Source: Methanosarcina sp. KYL-1
GTDB taxonomy: Archaea > Halobacteriota > Methanosarcinia > Methanosarcinales > Methanosarcinaceae
Assembly: GCF_024372725.1 (NCBI RefSeq)
Contig: NZ_VOUA01000004.1
Coordinates: 124,001-188,000, forward strand
DNA length: 64,000 nt
Reading direction: 5' to 3'
Position numbers and translations under genes: made by a program. The notes below the pieces were generated by a model, which saw nothing but the letters and a program-made list of their open reading frames with translations, was not told the DNA's origin and searched no databases. Within the stretch, counting starts at the first letter, position 1; each line of letters begins with the position of its first letter. Shown piece after piece: positions 54,838 through 62,428 of the stretch.

Positions 54838-55890
54838 TCAGAACAGGACATTAAGGGCATAACCCATCAAAAATAGCATAATTACAATATTTGCCAGAAG
54901 TACGGTTGTTTCTTTTTTCCCGAGGACCTTGAGCAGCATGAAAAACGAGGTCACGCATATTGCCGTCGAACTAAGGGAAAACACAAGAGAAGCCCCCATG
55001 GGCAGCCTGCCTCCCTCCATAAGAGGCCTCAGTACAAAAACATCTCCTCCGTTGCACAAATATGCAGGGATGCCCAGGCCCAGGGCAACGAAGATACTTC
55101 CAACTTTACTCGAAAGAAGGGAGGATAAGCTGGCAAGTTCAGGGGAATACAGCTCGAATAAAAGCCCTGCGACTCCTCCTAGCATGAGATAGGGGAACAC
55201 GGACTTGAATACATCAAAGGTTGACTCGTAAACGTCCTTTTCCGGTTTCCTTGTCGAGGGTCCGGTTTCGGTCACTCCGTTCAAACCGGGGTTTCCCTGA
55301 ATGGGGTGCAGGGAAAGTGTCCGTGAAGTCCCGGGAGCTGTTGCAGGGTTTGCGGAAACTTTTTCAGGCCCTTTCCAGCTTTCCGTTCTTAGCTTCTCCA
55401 CAATGATTCCGGTGGACACTGCAAGCACGAAAGCACAGAGAATCCTGAAGATGCCGAATTCCACGCCCAGTACGGAGAAGGAAAGTATGATGATATAAGG
55501 GTTCAGGATAGGTGCCGCTACAAGGAAGGTTACGAGTGTCCTCAGTTTCATCTTGTCTTTCATGGTTTCGACAAAGGGAATTGCCGTACAGGAGCATAAA
55601 GGCAGGATGGATGCGTAAATGAAGGCGGTGACCTGCCCTTTGGGATAAAATTTCCCGAATCTTGCAAAATAACGGCTCAGGAGCACTGCCAGGAAGACGC
55701 TTACCAGAAGTGTTACTGTGGATTCTACAAAATACTCAAAGAAAAGCCTCTGAACTTCGGGAAGATTCGCATAAACAAAGCACTGTTCCTTGGAAAGGTA
55801 ATTTATGTCGTTTACTGTTTTGTATACCCAATCAAAAGCTGTGAACAGTATTGCAAATAAAATCAACGTTTTGGCCAGAAATCTTCTCAT
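54838..55890 (-). CDS. UPF0718-type permease
   Basis: This 350-aa membrane protein matches the UPF0718/ArsP-like (PF03773) permeases: LPLCSCTAIPFVETMKDKMK, APILNPYIIILSFSVLG and, in the second half, GIPAYLCNGGDVFVLRPLME. There are about eight to ten spans in two halves joined by a soluble linker (residues ~190-225). Family members export organoarsenicals or other compounds, but most are uncharacterised. The start at 55890 follows GGAGA; 16 upstream codons lack conservation. Confidence 0.85.
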   Translation of the reverse strand: MRRFLAKTLILFAILFTAFDWVYKTVNDINYLSKEQCFVYANLPEVQRLFFEYFVESTVTLLVSVFLAVLLSRYFARFGKFYPKGQVTAFIYASILPLCSCTAIPFVETMKDKMKLRTLVTFLVAAPILNPYIIILSFSVLGVEFGIFRILCAFVLAVSTGIIVEKLRTESWKGPEKVSANPATAPGTSRTLSLHPIQGNPGLNGVTETGPSTRKPEKDVYESTFDVFKSVFPYLMLGGVAGLLFELYSPELASLSSLLSSKVGSIFVALGLGIPAYLCNGGDVFVLRPLMEGGRLPMGASLVFSLSSTAICVTSFFMLLKVLGKKETTVLLANIVIMLFLMGYALNVLF

Positions 55891-56531
55891 GTTCTCTCCT
55901 TTCCATGGGCAATGCTCAATCTTCTTTCTCCTTTTCATTATATCGTTTTTAAAACAAAACCTTCCCTGAAATCCAGGCTTCCACTTCTCAATTAATATTT
56001 TTGGAGCTTTTTCGTGAAGGCTACTTGTACTGCTTATAAATTTTTTGATAAATTCCCTGAGAACCTATTTAATTACCTGTAGGTCTTTATCATAAAAATA
56101 TTTATCTTTTAATTTTTCTTTTTTACATCCTTTCTTCTAATATTTTGATGTCCCCCTTCTCTTATTTTAAGCCCCAACATTATGAAAACTGAACTCCTGC
56201 ATACGTACCGTACTTAGATAAGTTCGGGTACTTTCCATGCAGAAACTCCGAAAATGTGAATAACCACTACGTATAAAAAATATTTCAATGTTTGGGCGTG
56301 GGTTTCGCGATTCATAGACTCTGTTTTAAATGTCCGGCCTTTTAAGCTGACCTGACGGACCTTTAAGTTCGAGCAGGCTGGAAACTTTTCCTGCTATCTC
56401 CTGGCAGGCTCAGTATGCCGGTCCGGGGGCTTGCAGTATAAAATATCCGCAGGCTTTCTGTTTCTCCTCTTTTTCACTGTTGGCATTTATTTGGTTAAAT
56501 CAAAAAAATAAAACCTTTTTCAATTTGCTTT

Positions 56532-57071: not shown

Positions 57072-57140
57072 AACATTCTACTTTTTAGGAACATTCTACT
57101 TTTTAGGAACATTCTACTTTTTAGGAACATTCTATCTTTT
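57072..57140. repeat. 18-bp tandem repeat
   Basis: AACATTCTACTTTTTAGG is repeated exactly three times from 57072, with a partial fourth copy. It is about 180 bases after the end of the FAD/Fe-S gene. Confidence 0.88.
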
Positions 57141-57320: not shown

Positions 57321-60300
57321 TCAGTGCGTCTTTATGTACTCGATCATCCTCGGGGTCAGCAGCGGGATAATCTGGGGCAGCATGTTAGGCATGAGGTTTT
57401 CCATGGCTTTTGGCATGAGGTCAGGGAGCTGCTCTTTCATGTGATCGGGCATCGGGACCCGCCTTTCCACGGCCTTGAGCATGTCAGGCATGACTTTGGG
57501 CATGACCGAAGGCATGAGCCTGGGCATCATTATGGGCATCATGGGCTTCATCATGGCATCCATGCCAGGCACGTATTTGACCATTTTCATCATGGCCTGA
57601 AGTGGAGAGGGCATGGCTGCCATCATCTCGGGCAGGAGTTCTACCATCAAGTCGGTCATGTTTTCGGGCTGCATGAGTGCGATCATTTTCTCAAAAGGCA
57701 CCCATGACTGCAGGGCGAAGTTTGTCGTGTCCGGGATGTCATAGCCGAGGCTTCTGGCCACAAGGGCGCCGAGGTCCTGGGACTCTATGTTCATGTTGTT
57801 TTTCTCGGCTGCGACACGGAACTGGACCGTACAGCAGGGGCACAGGGCCGCAAGGATGTCTGCATTCACATCTACAGCTTCCTGAAGCCTCATACCTCCA
57901 AGTTTATATGCAACCGGAGGCTCGGCAATAAGGCTCACCACCGAGCCGCAGCAGTGGGCATGTTCCCTGTTGTGCTCAAGTTCCCTGAACTGGAGGCCGG
58001 GGATGGCTTTCAACAGCTCTCTCGGAGGTTCGTACACCTTCCCGCCGGCTCTTCCCAGGTGGCAGGAGTCATGCCAGGCAACCACTTTATTCAGAGGTTT
58101 TTTGAATTTGGGCTTCAGCACGTCCAGGCGCTCCACCAGGACTTCGGAATAGTGCTTTGTCTCAAGCCCGTACTCGATCCCCAGTTTTTCCGCCCACTGA
58201 GGATAGACTGTATGCCACATGAGCCAGCAGGCAGGGCAGGAAGTGATCACGGTTTTTACGCCTTTCTTTTTCATGTTAGCGACGTTCATCCTCATGATCT
58301 TTTCAAATACGTCCCACTTTCCTGCAACGAGCATGGGAATTCCACAGCAAGCCTCCTTGTCAAAAAGCCCCGTGAATTCGACACCTGCATCATCGAGCAT
58401 ACGCACAGCTCCGACAGCAACGTCTTTTTCCACAAAGGAGGCGGTGCAGCCTGCAAAGTAAGCGTATTCGGCTTCGTCCTTCATCTTTGCCCGGATATCG
58501 TCCGGGATCCATTTGTCCCGGTCTTTCCTGTAGTTTGCCCAGATGTTCCTTTCTTTCAGGAGGCTTGCAGCCATGATCTCAAAGGGCGGGAAGGTCATTT
58601 TTTTCTCTTCTTCAATCAGCTTTCCGCGCATGGTCATCCAGGCATGTTCGATTGGCATGTCCAGTTCACAGCGGGAGTCGCACATCTGGCAGGTGGTGCA
58701 GGCAAGGAAGGTGTTTGTCTGCCTCTGGTCAAGCTTTTCCCGGCCTGCCAGGTATTCCTTGATGAAGAACCATTTTCCCCTGGGCGACTGGGACTCCCAG
58801 CCCCTTCCGTAGTACTGGTCACATTCGCTCACGCAGTACCCGCACTGGGAACAGGAGTAGGCAAGTTCGGCAATGTCGGCCGGAATGCCTTTTTCGTCTT
58901 TGAAGGAAACTTCCCCGATCCCTGACATGTTCCCCACAAGCCTGCCCATGGGTTCGAAAGAAGAGCCAAGGGAGACTGCGGTGTTCAGGAGCCCCTTTCC
59001 TTCCAGGGTCTCGGGGTTCATGATCCCGTTGGGGTCGAATTCTTTCCTGAGGGCTTCGATTTCCGAAAGCCTGTCCCCAAAGACGCTCTTTTTCTTTGAG
59101 GCGAAGAAAAGCCCGGAAGAATAAGCCCTGCCCCCGTTTTCTTCCGCAACCTTCAGGATGCTCAGGGAAAGGGCAAAAGCTGTGTTGAAAAGGACGGAGC
59201 GCTCGGAGTGGCGCATGAAACAGAGGAGCACGACGTTTCCATCCCCTATCACCATGCCTTCGGTAAGTACCGGGAGTTTTACCCTCTTTTTTATCTCTTC
59301 AAAAGTAATGTCCATCTTCTCAAGGGGCACCAGGACCTCGGCAGGGATGAAAGAGGGGCCGAGCCTTTTGACCTTCATGGACTTGAACCATTCCTCGGTC
59401 TCGTGCTTTGCAATCTCCTCGGGAAGGACCGTGCCGCCAGCGCTCTCTATTGCTTCTTTTAAGCCTGAGATGGCCCTCGAGGCAGGGTACATGAAGGTGC
59501 AGACGTAAGCCACGGGCAGCACTGGCCTATCTTTGTCCACGATTTCCCCGTAGTGGAGTTTTCTGGGCGCCTTATTCTTCATGTCCGCCCATTCGGGGTT
59601 CAGGAATGAGATCGACCAGAGCGGGATTTTCTTTTCCCTTATGGTTTCGACTGCTTTTTTCATGCTTGAAGCATCAGGGAAACTTGCGGAAACAGCCCTT
59701 CTCTCTTCTTGTTTCTGGACCTTCAGGGTTATTTCGGTGATAATGCCCGTCGTCCCCATAGTCCCTGTGATCTTCCTGAGTTCGGGGCCTGAAAATTCCT
59801 TTATTTTTCCGTTGGGGAGGACAACCCTGACTTTTTCCATGCTCTCGTGGCCCCAGCCGAACTCATAACTTCCATATCCGGCCCCACTCTGCATGAGCCA
59901 GCCCCCGACGGTCGAAGAAGGGGCGCTTGAAGGAATTGCCCTGACCGAGAGGCCCTCTTCATTCAGCTTCCTCTCAAGCTTCTCCCAGATTATCCCGCTC
60001 TCCACAACTGCTTTTTGCCCTTCGGGGTCGATGCTGAGCACCCTGTTCAGCAGGGTGACATCGGCAACAATCCCTCCTTTTGTAGGGATTACCCCTCCGT
60101 ACCCCGAGGATGCCCCTGCACGGGGGACTACAGGAATCCTGTGCCGGTTTGCAAATTCCAGGAGCTTTACGGCGTCTTCTTCCGTCCGGATTTTTACAAC
60201 AGCTGCCGGATCAGTGTTCCCTACCACTTTTTTGACAAGAGGGGGTAGGGCTCCTATATCGTGGTTGTAGTAGTGGCGTTCGCGTTTGTCAAGATTGACG

Positions 60301-60368
60301 CATTCTCCGAAGAGCTCGGAGAGTTCTTTTTTCTGTGCAGCTGATAGTTCCGGGACGCGGCTTGTCAT
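57321..60368 (-). CDS. FAD-linked oxidase fused to Fe-S/CCG domains (D-lactate dehydrogenase/GlcD-HdrD type) with Met-rich tail
   Basis: This 1015-aa protein has an FAD_binding_4 domain (residues ~50-220, with GASSGYGGVIPTKGGIV), an FAD-oxidase C domain (~225-455), two 4Fe-4S motifs (C506-x2-C509-x2-C512-x3-C516 and C557-x2-C560-x2-C563-x3-C567) and two CCG-type modules (C641, C674-C675, C711 and C714; C769, C806-C807, C843-C846). This resembles 2-hydroxyacid or D-lactate dehydrogenases coupled to heterodisulfide-reductase-like electron transfer. The last ~120 residues hold 28 methionines in MPxxM-type repeats. GGAGG precedes the ATG. Confidence 0.88.
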   Translation of the reverse strand: MTSRVPELSAAQKKELSELFGECVNLDKRERHYYNHDIGALPPLVKKVVGNTDPAAVVKIRTEEDAVKLLEFANRHRIPVVPRAGASSGYGGVIPTKGGIVADVTLLNRVLSIDPEGQKAVVESGIIWEKLERKLNEEGLSVRAIPSSAPSSTVGGWLMQSGAGYGSYEFGWGHESMEKVRVVLPNGKIKEFSGPELRKITGTMGTTGIITEITLKVQKQEERRAVSASFPDASSMKKAVETIREKKIPLWSISFLNPEWADMKNKAPRKLHYGEIVDKDRPVLPVAYVCTFMYPASRAISGLKEAIESAGGTVLPEEIAKHETEEWFKSMKVKRLGPSFIPAEVLVPLEKMDITFEEIKKRVKLPVLTEGMVIGDGNVVLLCFMRHSERSVLFNTAFALSLSILKVAEENGGRAYSSGLFFASKKKSVFGDRLSEIEALRKEFDPNGIMNPETLEGKGLLNTAVSLGSSFEPMGRLVGNMSGIGEVSFKDEKGIPADIAELAYSCSQCGYCVSECDQYYGRGWESQSPRGKWFFIKEYLAGREKLDQRQTNTFLACTTCQMCDSRCELDMPIEHAWMTMRGKLIEEEKKMTFPPFEIMAASLLKERNIWANYRKDRDKWIPDDIRAKMKDEAEYAYFAGCTASFVEKDVAVGAVRMLDDAGVEFTGLFDKEACCGIPMLVAGKWDVFEKIMRMNVANMKKKGVKTVITSCPACWLMWHTVYPQWAEKLGIEYGLETKHYSEVLVERLDVLKPKFKKPLNKVVAWHDSCHLGRAGGKVYEPPRELLKAIPGLQFRELEHNREHAHCCGSVVSLIAEPPVAYKLGGMRLQEAVDVNADILAALCPCCTVQFRVAAEKNNMNIESQDLGALVARSLGYDIPDTTNFALQSWVPFEKMIALMQPENMTDLMVELLPEMMAAMPSPLQAMMKMVKYVPGMDAMMKPMMPIMMPRLMPSVMPKVMPDMLKAVERRVPMPDHMKEQLPDLMPKAMENLMPNMLPQIIPLLTPRMIEYIKTH

Positions 60369-60655: not shown

Positions 60656-61273
60656 TTAGAAATGCAGGGCATCTTTCGGGCAGACACTCACACAGCGTCC
60701 GCATTTGATGCAGTCGGGCTTTGTCTCGTTTTTGCAGACCTTAAGCTGCATGGGACAGGCTTTTTCGCATTTCTTACAGTTGATGCACTTGTCTTTTTCA
60801 AGTTTCAGCTGGTACTTCTTTCCTCCCAGCAGGTTCTGGGCTGTTCCCATGGGGCAGAAGGAACACCAGGCCCTCGGGCTCAGGAAGCTGCCGAGAAGGA
60901 CTGCGATTGCCGTTGTCACAATACACATGGTAACAAAGACCATGCCGACTTTTTCGAAAATGTTCAGTGTCCCTATTATGCTTGCAATCCTGTAGCCCAT
61001 GAAGCCCATGAGCAGGATAAAGATCGGAAGGCGTATCCAGAGGCTTCTGAAAATTCCGGGGATCTTCCCTCTCTTTGAAATCTTGCTGACCCAGAAGTCA
61101 ACCAGGCTTCCCCGCGGGCAGAGGTTCCCGCAGAACCACCGGCCCCTGAAGGGGCTGATAAGGAAGATTGCGGCAAAGATGAGCAGCATGAAATACCCGA
61201 GGGCCGGATACCAGAGCCCTCCGATTGAGACGATAAGTACCAGGATTCCCAGGTAAGGTGTTATTTTTAACAA
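60656..61273 (-). CDS. NapH-like membrane polyferredoxin
   Basis: This protein has four to five membrane spans, the NapH-type CGNLCPRGSLVDF and CSFCPMG motifs on the membrane loops, and two C-terminal 4Fe-4S motifs (CINCKKCEKACPM, CIKCGRCVSVCPK). It probably passes electrons at the membrane. I place the start at the TTG at 61273, which follows CGGAG and lies five bases after the regulator stop; a TTG at 61339 would overlap the regulator gene by 62 bases. The regulator and ferredoxin probably form an operon. Confidence 0.85.
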   Translation of the reverse strand: MLKITPYLGILVLIVSIGGLWYPALGYFMLLIFAAIFLISPFRGRWFCGNLCPRGSLVDFWVSKISKRGKIPGIFRSLWIRLPIFILLMGFMGYRIASIIGTLNIFEKVGMVFVTMCIVTTAIAVLLGSFLSPRAWCSFCPMGTAQNLLGGKKYQLKLEKDKCINCKKCEKACPMQLKVCKNETKPDCIKCGRCVSVCPKDALHF

Positions 61274-61277
61274 GTTA

Positions 61278-61637
61278 TCAAGCTCCGTTTTCCCATTGTT
61301 CCAGTTCTTGCCCGAGCCTCTCAGCCCAGGTCCGGACAACGTTCATGATTATGTTTTTGATTTTTGTTCTCGAATGGACTTTATATATGAAGATGTAGCC
61401 ACCCCCGTCCAGGTTCTGCTGTGACCTCTGCAGGATCTCTTTTTCATGCAGTTTTTTGGCGGAACGCTGGACTGTGGAGATGTCGAGTTCAAGTTTTTTT
61501 GAAAGAGTGTCAGTGTCAAACCAGTGTTCAGTGTCATTGAAGAAATGCTTCAATACCTTCAGGTCGGCTCTTGTAAGGTTCAGGGAGCATTTTATTACGT
61601 CTTCTACCTTGAATTCTTTACAGGCAAAATCTATCAT
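61278..61637 (-). CDS. Winged-helix transcriptional regulator, copy 1
   Basis: This 119-aa protein has a winged-helix DNA-binding domain (residues ~23-72, LTRADLKVLKHFFND then LSKKLELDISTVQRSAKKLHE) and a beta-wing GGGYIFIYKVHS, like TrmB/MarR-type archaeal regulators. GAGGT precedes the ATG. It lies just upstream of the NapH-like gene and probably controls it. A near copy (about 91 percent identical) is at 62069. Confidence 0.88.
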   Translation of the reverse strand: MIDFACKEFKVEDVIKCSLNLTRADLKVLKHFFNDTEHWFDTDTLSKKLELDISTVQRSAKKLHEKEILQRSQQNLDGGGYIFIYKVHSRTKIKNIIMNVVRTWAERLGQELEQWENGA

Positions 61638-62068: not shown

Positions 62069-62428
62069 TCAGGCTCTGCTTTCCCATTGCTCCAGTTCCT
62101 GCCCTAGCCTCTCAGCCCAGCTCTGGACAACGCCCATTATTATGTTTTTGATTTTTGTTCTTGAATGGACTTTATAGATGAAGACATAGCCTCCCCCGTC
62201 CAGGTTCTGCTGTGACCTTTGCAGGATCTCCTTTTCATGCAGTTTTTTGACGGAGCGCTGGACCGTAGAGATGTCGAGTTTCAGGGCTTTTGAAAGGGTG
62301 TCAGTGTCAAACCAGTGTTCGGTATCGTTTATGAAGTGCTTCAATACCTTCAGGTCAGCCCTGGTAAGGTTCAGGGCGCATTTTATTACGTCTTCTACCT
62401 TGAACTCCTTGCATGCAAAGTCTATCAT
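62069..62428 (-). CDS. Winged-helix transcriptional regulator, copy 2
   Basis: This 119-aa protein differs from the copy at 61278 by 11 residues, including K48/E50 changed to A/K in the helix-turn-helix region and several at the C-terminus. GAGGG precedes the ATG. Its original downstream partner, a NapH-like gene, survives only as a fragment. It may still act on shared sites or be free to diverge. Confidence 0.87.
   Translation of the reverse strand: MIDFACKEFKVEDVIKCALNLTRADLKVLKHFINDTEHWFDTDTLSKALKLDISTVQRSVKKLHEKEILQRSQQNLDGGGYVFIYKVHSRTKIKNIIMGVVQSWAERLGQELEQWESRA

What the first reader, a model, noticed from the sequence alone, without database searches (positions are those of the whole stretch)
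57321..60368. Methionine-rich tail on a FAD/Fe-S oxidoreductase
Residues 895-1015 contain 28 methionines, many in PxxMP steps such as PMMPIMMPRLMPSVMPKVMP. The catalytic parts end near 880. Such a tail could bind copper or another soft metal, attach to a membrane, or act as an oxidant sink.
Basis: partly seen in the sequence, partly recalled or inferred. Interest (0 to 1): 0.66.

Follow-up and report, generated by a model that had tools for sequence, protein, structure and literature searches.

The report
Methionine-proline tail domain on flavin enzyme
A flavin and iron-sulfur enzyme of a methane-producing archaeon ends in a conserved, folded, methionine- and proline-rich helical domain that also occurs on the same enzyme across many bacteria; it has no named family or solved structure and may dock the enzyme to the membrane.

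Summary
A 1015-residue FAD/Fe-S protein lies on the minus strand at window 60368..57321, and residues 895-1015 hold exactly 28 Met (P about 1e-19). The genome is a Methanosarcina-type archaeon.

The tail is neither a stray extension nor disordered. It is an undescribed domain that marks one clade of oxidoreductases across archaea and about ten bacterial phyla. In whole-protein searches of three groups, close homologues (at least 47% identity) run through the tail, while more distant ones (at most 38%) stop near residue 880-890. The tail is as conserved as the catalytic domains. It has no Pfam family, no PDB sequence relative and no Foldseek match.

AlphaFold predicts (pLDDT about 90) four short helices and then a long hairpin (936-970, 975-1014) built of four-residue Pro-x-hydrophobic-Met repeats. 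The enzyme part is a D-lactate-dehydrogenase/AGPS-like FAD domain without the usual metal-binding histidines, two Fe-S clusters, and two complete HdrB-type CCG sites.

I favour a membrane-interface or quinone-access module that lets one soluble chain feed the quinone or methanophenazine pool (confidence 0.4, untested). Ligand or partner binding and a structural role remain open. Metal binding and an oxidant sink are less likely.

The parts
57321..60368 (-). CDS, 1015 aa FAD / Fe-S / CCG oxidoreductase with Pro-Met tail domain
   Evidence: ORF and translation; ribosome-binding-like AGGAGG just upstream of the ATG
59793..60209 (-). FAD_binding_4 domain (residues 54-192)
   Evidence: Pfam E=1.4e-33; fold match to D-lactate dehydrogenase LDHD and AGPS
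59010..59711 (-). FAD-oxidase_C domain (residues 220-453), lacking the GDGNxH / EHG metal-site histidines of D-2-hydroxyacid dehydrogenases
   Evidence: Pfam E=7e-6; alignment with the Methanosarcina GlcD-type protein (MA4631 by position)
58656..58856 (-). 4Fe-4S dicluster domain (residues 505-571), eight invariant Cys
58227..58448 (-). First CCG site (C641, C674-C675, C711-x-x-C714)
   Evidence: all five Cys invariant in 25 representatives
57816..58082 (-). Second CCG domain (residues 763-851; C769, C806-C807, C843-x-x-C846) plus family-specific invariant C845
57324..57731 (-). Tail domain (residues 880-1015): Met/Pro-rich, all helical, no Pfam or PDB relative
57582..57725 (-). Four short tail helices (residues 882-929)
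   Evidence: AlphaFold2 models
57459..57563 (-). Hairpin helix 1 (residues 936-970), Pro-x-hydrophobic-Met tetrads, the most apolar part, basic polar stripe (K941, R950, invariant K958)
57327..57446 (-). Hairpin helix 2 (residues 975-1014), Met at 973/977/985/989/993 (981 Met in most relatives) in a four-residue stripe
60656..61339 (-). Upstream neighbour: NapH-like membrane 4Fe-4S protein (Fer4_5), conserved upstream in Methanosarcina and one other genus
   Evidence: 287-bp AT-rich gap, so co-transcription is uncertain
61278..61637 (-). Upstream neighbour: winged-helix regulator (DnaD_N / MarR-like)

Best explanation
The protein is a self-contained dehydrogenase. Substrate electrons would enter at FAD, pass two ordinary [4Fe-4S] clusters, and reach two HdrB-type CCG (noncubane Fe-S) sites. 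The tail is a folded all-helical domain fused after the second CCG site; its core is a long helical hairpin in which Pro-x-hydrophobic-Met tetrads give each helix soft apolar stripes and an interrupted backbone hydrogen-bond ladder. I propose that the tail is a monotopic docking module. It would sit in the membrane interface, or form a soft pocket for a lipid-soluble carrier, next to the CCG sites, so that the soluble enzyme can deliver electrons to the quinone pool (methanophenazine in Methanosarcina, menaquinone elsewhere) without a separate membrane subunit. Shown: the architecture, the conservation, the tail's strict link to this clade, the periodicity, and the absence of the metal-site histidines. 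Predicted: the fold. Inferred: cluster occupancy, membrane or quinone contact, direction of electron flow. Unknown: the substrate.
For: The tail sits directly after the CCG domain, and in a split homologue it stays on the CCG subunit (L064). It runs through the close homologues and is missing from the distant ones, and it is less diverged than the body in 84% of pairs. It is strongly apolar and amphipathic with exact four-residue periodicity (0-3 of 500 shuffles) but has no transmembrane segment (19-residue hydropathy at most about 0.7 in the windows sampled). No dedicated membrane subunit recurs next to the gene, so the chain has to reach its acceptor alone. One Aminicenantes locus places it directly behind cydAB, a quinol oxidase. 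Precedent: the CCG subunit SdhE of methylmenaquinol:fumarate reductase is a membrane anchor without transmembrane helices, with membrane association attributed to amphipathic helices (PMC2680327).
Against: No membrane binding, quinone binding or activity has been measured. Fifteen of the 28 Met are kept at 90% or more (2 of 28 in the body), which a generic hydrophobic anchor would not obviously need. Neighbours are heterogeneous, and cydAB was seen at only one locus. Some Methanosarcina lack the gene, as do all but one chance hit of the sampled family f6 of the same class, which probably is Methanothrix. AlphaFold helices with a Pro at every fourth residue need experimental proof. The attempted link to membrane cytochromes (Pfam PF02665) was uninformative.
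Confidence: 0.4

Rival explanations
1. The tail is a soft hydrophobic binding domain for a ligand or partner protein, working like the methionine-rich M domain of SRP54: flexible Met side chains form an adaptable groove for a hydrophobic substrate, a peptide or an electron-carrier protein.
For: Met identity itself is selected at about half the positions. FadL/TodX-type hydrophobic-compound transporters lie directly downstream in two bacterial loci (L094, L146). The FAD half also resembles the lipid enzyme AGPS. SRP54 shows that Met-rich helices can do this (PMC2568955).
Against: No sequence or fold relation to the M domain. No recurring partner gene. The Met stripes may simply be the internal interface of the hairpin.
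Confidence: 0.25
2. The tail is structural: the Pro-Met hairpin is a dimerisation or oligomerisation arm, or a clamp that shields the solvent-sensitive CCG clusters, with no membrane or ligand role.
For: It is predicted to fold confidently on its own (pLDDT 89.8). Antiparallel covariation at i+j=1945 matches Met/hydrophobic stripes facing each other in the hairpin. It evolves in step with the body (Spearman 0.83).
Against: Tail-less paralogues with the same domain order manage without it. A second apolar stripe on each helix is left over after the hairpin is formed. The covariation is modest, and a parallel band scores similarly at the matrix edge.
Confidence: 0.22
3. The tail binds Cu(I) or another soft metal through Met thioethers.
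For: 28 Met, 10 of them invariant in 25 representatives. ArsR-family regulators precede the gene in 16 bacterial loci, and an ArsP permease with a heavy-metal domain precedes it in one (L086).
Against: 12-13 of the Met positions swap with Leu/Ile/Val/Phe. Cys is absent in 24 of 25 representatives and there is no conserved His. The protein starts without an evident export signal, and Met-only copper sites are typical of exported proteins (own knowledge). The adjacent ArsR-type regulators show one recurrent Cys and no CxC metal motif.
Confidence: 0.06
4. The tail is an oxidant sink: sacrificial methionines protect the clusters, with repair by Msr.
For: Several loci have oxidative-stress genes beside it: desulfoferrodoxin (L104), rubrerythrin (L086), AhpC/TSA or thioredoxin-like proteins (L112, L142, L091), cydAB (L126).
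Against: A sink needs many exposed Met but not fixed positions, whereas here the Met positions, the Pro positions and the predicted fold are all conserved. At the variable positions Met is replaced by non-oxidisable Leu/Phe/Ile.
Confidence: 0.03

Closest known systems
SdhE (CCG-type membrane-anchor subunit of E-type succinate:quinone / methylmenaquinol:fumarate reductases, PMC2680327)
   Same: HdrB-like CCG domains, no transmembrane helix, amphipathic helices thought to hold it at the membrane, quinone-linked
   Different: SdhE is a separate subunit of a three-part enzyme. Here the CCG part is fused to a FAD dehydrogenase and carries a Pro-Met tetrad hairpin; no such tail is reported for SdhE in the passages read
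HdrD / HdrB of heterodisulfide reductase
   Same: Two complete CCG motifs and a preceding 4Fe-4S dicluster domain as in HdrD
   Different: Fused FAD dehydrogenase, no HdrE beside it, an extra invariant Cys (C845), a Pro-Met tail
Fused FAD/Fe-S D-2-hydroxyacid dehydrogenases (YdiJ, GlcD+GlcF, LDHD)
   Same: FAD_binding_4 fold and FAD-plus-CCG domain order
   Different: Metal-binding histidines of the GDGNxH and EHG motifs are absent; NCBIfam YdiJ (47.6 of 1350 bits) and GlcD (106 of 568 bits) cut-offs not met; no Pro-Met tail is known for these families (own knowledge)
E. coli respiratory D-lactate dehydrogenase (membrane-binding domain, Pfam Lact-deh-memb)
   Same: Same FAD superfamily, peripheral membrane enzyme feeding quinones (own knowledge)
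   Different: Its membrane-binding domain is a different family; no Pfam match here
SRP54 M domain
   Same: Methionine-rich helical domain used for soft hydrophobic recognition
   Different: No sequence or fold match; no Pro tetrads known there

Membership tests
FAD_binding_4 (VAO/PCMH) oxidoreductases | FAD_binding_4 fold | tested here: met
   Pfam E=1.4e-33; Foldseek E down to 8.5e-23 with LDHD structures
D-2-hydroxyacid dehydrogenases (GlcD/LDHD/D2HGDH type) | Active-site metal histidines in GDGNxH and EHG motifs | tested here: not met
   The motifs read GDGNVVLL and AYSSGLFF in the window protein and are equally absent in the four diverse tailed relatives shown, whereas the Methanosarcina GlcD-type protein has them
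D-2-hydroxyglutarate dehydrogenase YdiJ | NCBIfam equivalog cut-off (1350 bits) | tested here: not met
   47.6 bits
CCG (HdrB/HdrD-like) proteins | Two complete CCG cysteine motifs (C, CC, CxxC) | tested here: met
   C641, C674-675, C711, C714 and C769, C806-807, C843, C846, all invariant in 25 representatives
Heterodisulfide reductase HdrDE | Neighbouring cytochrome b subunit HdrE | tested here: not met
   No recurring membrane cytochrome beside the gene; the PF02665 genome survey was too insensitive to add anything
SdhE-type monotopic CCG anchor | CCG domain with no transmembrane helix but amphipathic helices | tested here: met
   Hydropathy at most about 0.7 over 19 residues in the windows sampled; amphipathic with four-residue periodicity
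SdhE-type monotopic CCG anchor | Membrane association and quinone reactivity | not testable with these tools
   Needs fractionation and enzyme assays
Lact-deh-memb membrane-binding domain | Pfam match | tested here: not met
   No match for the window protein or 83 tail sequences
SRP54 M domain | Sequence profile or fold match | tested here: not met
Met-rich copper-binding proteins | Conserved thioether (with His/Cys) ligand set | tested here: inconclusive
   10 Met invariant in 25 representatives, but 12-13 of 28 positions swap with Leu/Ile/Val/Phe; no conserved Cys or His in the tail

The most novel reading that the evidence does not exclude
The tail is a new protein domain with an unseen architecture: long alpha-helices made of four-residue Pro-x-hydrophobic-Met repeats, paired as a hairpin. 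It would act as a soft membrane-interface or quinone-binding device that turns an HdrD-like FAD enzyme into a single-chain quinone (or methanophenazine) reductase, an electron-entry point in archaeal and bacterial respiratory chains that has not been described.
Probability: 0.3. Interest if true: 0.82.

Novelty: new variant of a known kind. Interest (0 to 1): 0.6.

Why it matters
A conserved domain spread over archaea and about ten bacterial phyla appears to have been overlooked: no Pfam family, no PDB relative, no fold match, and no paper found in the literature searches made here. Proline at every fourth residue is normally thought to break helices, so a stable helical hairpin built that way would be a new structural motif. 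If the tail docks the enzyme to the membrane or quinone pool, it explains how a single-chain HdrD-like dehydrogenase could work without a membrane subunit, and it adds a candidate electron input to methanophenazine in Methanosarcina. All of this is directly testable with a truncation at residue 880.

Tried and rejected
(1) Identity with M. acetivorans 'D-lactate dehydrogenase' MA4631, reported to work with CydAB in O2 detoxification (PMC11619418): rejected. By position beside tgtA, MA4631 is a separate GlcD/GlcF gene pair, while the true orthologue is at L073:5812-8862. (2) Transmembrane anchor: rejected, hydropathy too low. (3) Intrinsic disorder: rejected, two models with high pLDDT and strong conservation. 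(4) Tail as a mobile module on other proteins: not seen. The own genome has one copy and all distant loci carry it on the same enzyme. Two weak tail hits (G395, G110) were low-complexity reading frames. (5) PF02665 as a marker of membrane cytochromes for a phylogenetic profile: abandoned, it misses many Methanosarcinaceae. (6) Plasmid records: only tail-less relatives at about 25% identity. (7) Literature: no description of the tail found.

Full report
Observation. The named interval encodes, on the minus strand, one open frame of 1015 codons. Residues 895-1015 contain exactly 28 Met and 19 Pro; against 2.4% Met in the other reading frames of the window this has P = 1e-19, and no other 121-residue stretch in the window exceeds 11 Met. 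The window is from a 4.0-Mb Methanosarcina-type genome (the orthologue in the 5,751,492-base genome G015, which I take from its size to be M. acetivorans, has the same neighbours).

Enzyme part. Pfam gives FAD_binding_4 (54-192), FAD-oxidase_C (220-453), a 4Fe-4S dicluster domain (505-571) and CCG domains up to residue 851. The model of the FAD half matches D-lactate dehydrogenase LDHD and alkylglycerone-phosphate synthase structures. Both CCG motifs are complete, and an extra Cys (845) is invariant in the tailed family but absent from the tail-less paralogues compared. The metal-site histidines of D-2-hydroxyacid dehydrogenases are missing in the window protein and in the diverse tailed relatives inspected, so 'D-lactate dehydrogenase' is not a safe name. 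A lactate-racemase-like gene does lie upstream in one relative (L023), so a hydroxyacid substrate is not excluded.

Distribution of the tail. Searching with the whole protein in 60 relatives, the close homologues (48-93% identity) that are not cut by a contig end or broken run to residue 1013-1015, and the best tail-less ones (at most 38%) end at 877-883. The tail alone is found in 98 of 200 genomes of the class (a few of these are fragments or chance low-complexity hits). A scan of one genome per species found 212 relatives, of which 80 were fetched. They include Aminicenantes, Chloroflexota, Gemmatimonadota, Actinomycetota, Bacillota, Deltaproteobacteria/Syntrophaceae, Planctomycetota, Spirochaetota, Elusimicrobia, KSB1 and Methanoperedens, nearly all as the same roughly 1030-residue enzyme at 44-55% identity outside the Methanosarcinales, the rest being cut by contig ends or split frames. 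That scan selected for the tail, so I repeated it without that bias using a whole bacterial protein: in 120 Anaerolineae-class genomes all 15 hits (51-100%) reach the tail end. In 148 genomes of the Syntrophaceae phylum all eight close hits do (one of them broken by stop codons), while all hits at 30% or less stop before 892. One homologue is split into two genes, and the tail stays with the CCG half (L064). The tail is therefore a defining part of this clade, found once in this genome, and not a portable module.

Conservation. Among 25 representatives below 70% identity, mean pairwise identity is 0.57 in the tail and 0.63 in its core, against 0.55 (FAD), 0.64 (Fer4) and 0.56 (CCG). Tail and body distances correlate (Spearman 0.83), and the tail is the less diverged in 84% of pairs. 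Fifteen of the 28 tail Met are Met in at least 90% of representatives, against 2 of 28 body Met; the other tail positions change almost only to Leu, Ile, Val or Phe. The selection is therefore partly for Met itself and partly for soft hydrophobicity.

Fold. Full-length and tail-only AlphaFold2 models agree (mean pLDDT 90.4 and 89.8): helices 882-898, 901-910, 912-918, 921-929, and two long helices 936-970 and 975-1014. In both long helices hydrophobicity repeats at 3.9-4.1 residues, not 3.6 (0-3 of 500 shuffles), with Pro, a polar residue, a hydrophobic residue and Met in turn. Covariation between the two helices peaks on the antiparallel register expected for a hairpin (i+j = 1945; 6 of 1000 permutations), though a parallel band at the edge of the matrix scores similarly, so this is weak support. 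No PDB or viral model matches the tail fold and no Pfam family covers it. Helices with a Pro in every fourth place are unusual, and the model needs experimental proof.

Context. In Methanosarcina and one other genus a winged-helix regulator and a NapH-like membrane Fe-S protein precede the gene, but a 287-base AT-rich gap with a TATA-like run suggests that the enzyme gene has its own promoter. In 16 bacterial loci an ArsR-family regulator lies directly upstream on the same strand, with one recurrent Cys and no CxC motif. Other direct neighbours are scattered: cydAB (L126), desulfoferrodoxin (L104), rubrerythrin (L086), AhpC/TSA- or thioredoxin-like proteins (L112, L142, L091), FadL/TodX transporters (L094, L146) and enolase-superfamily genes. 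Several belong to oxygen or redox handling, but none is frequent, and I did not test enrichment against a background. No dedicated membrane subunit recurs.

Mechanism. The order FAD, two [4Fe-4S], two CCG sites is established by sequence; cluster occupancy and electron flow are inferred. Because a single polypeptide carries all cofactors, no partner recurs, and an apolar folded domain follows the last cluster domain, I consider docking to the membrane interface or to a lipid-soluble carrier the most likely role (0.4). SdhE, a CCG subunit without transmembrane helices that anchors a menaquinol-linked reductase, with membrane association attributed to amphipathic helices, is the closest working precedent (PMC2680327). 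An SRP54-like soft binding groove (0.25) or a purely structural role (0.22) remain possible. Soft-metal binding (0.06) and an oxidant sink (0.03) fit the substitution pattern poorly. Some Methanosarcina lack the gene and one carries only decayed fragments of the tail (G007), so it is dispensable.

Evolution. The tree of the enzyme body groups the Methanosarcinales with Syntrophomonadaceae-type Firmicutes (support 0.95) and places Methanoperedens among bacterial sequences, which points to transfer between domains.

Verdict. A real and well-conserved feature, more interesting than first described: an unnamed Pro-Met tetrad domain defining a cross-domain family of FAD/CCG oxidoreductases. Function and substrate are untested.

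Noticed in passing
window 61278-61637 and 62069-62428 (minus strand): Two tandem winged-helix regulator genes of 119 aa, 91% identical, a recent duplication; only the nearer copy is followed by the NapH-like gene.
   Followed up: partly
window 57072-57140: Short tandem array, 3.8 copies of AACATTCTACTTTTTAGG, about 180 bases beyond the 3' end of the enzyme gene.
   Followed up: no
G007:C6:22210-22539 (locus L071), L019, L027: Decayed tail remnants or broken copies of the gene in some Methanosarcina genomes, and apparent absence in others (G001, G008, G016, G019, G022), so the gene is being lost in parts of the genus.
   Followed up: partly
L080, L081, L109, L116, L125, L128, L131, L133, L136, L140, L143, L144, L148, L149, L153, L158: ArsR-family regulator with one recurrent Cys near its N terminus directly upstream of the tailed enzyme in 16 bacterial loci; its inducer could reveal the enzyme's role.
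   Followed up: partly
L126:1003-6498: cydA-cydB followed by the tailed enzyme on the same strand in an Aminicenantes genome, a possible quinone-to-oxygen operon.
   Followed up: partly
L094:6625-7878 and L146:6523-7851: FadL/TodX outer-membrane transporter directly downstream of the tailed enzyme in two unrelated bacteria, hinting at a hydrophobic substrate.
   Followed up: no
G000:C12 (locus L076:3184-5901): A tail-less paralogue (37-38% identity) in the same genome, also FAD + Fer4 + CCG, of unknown role.
   Followed up: partly
window 54838-55938 (minus strand): ArsP-type permease (Pfam PF03773, E=1.8e-32) a short way downstream of the enzyme.
   Followed up: no
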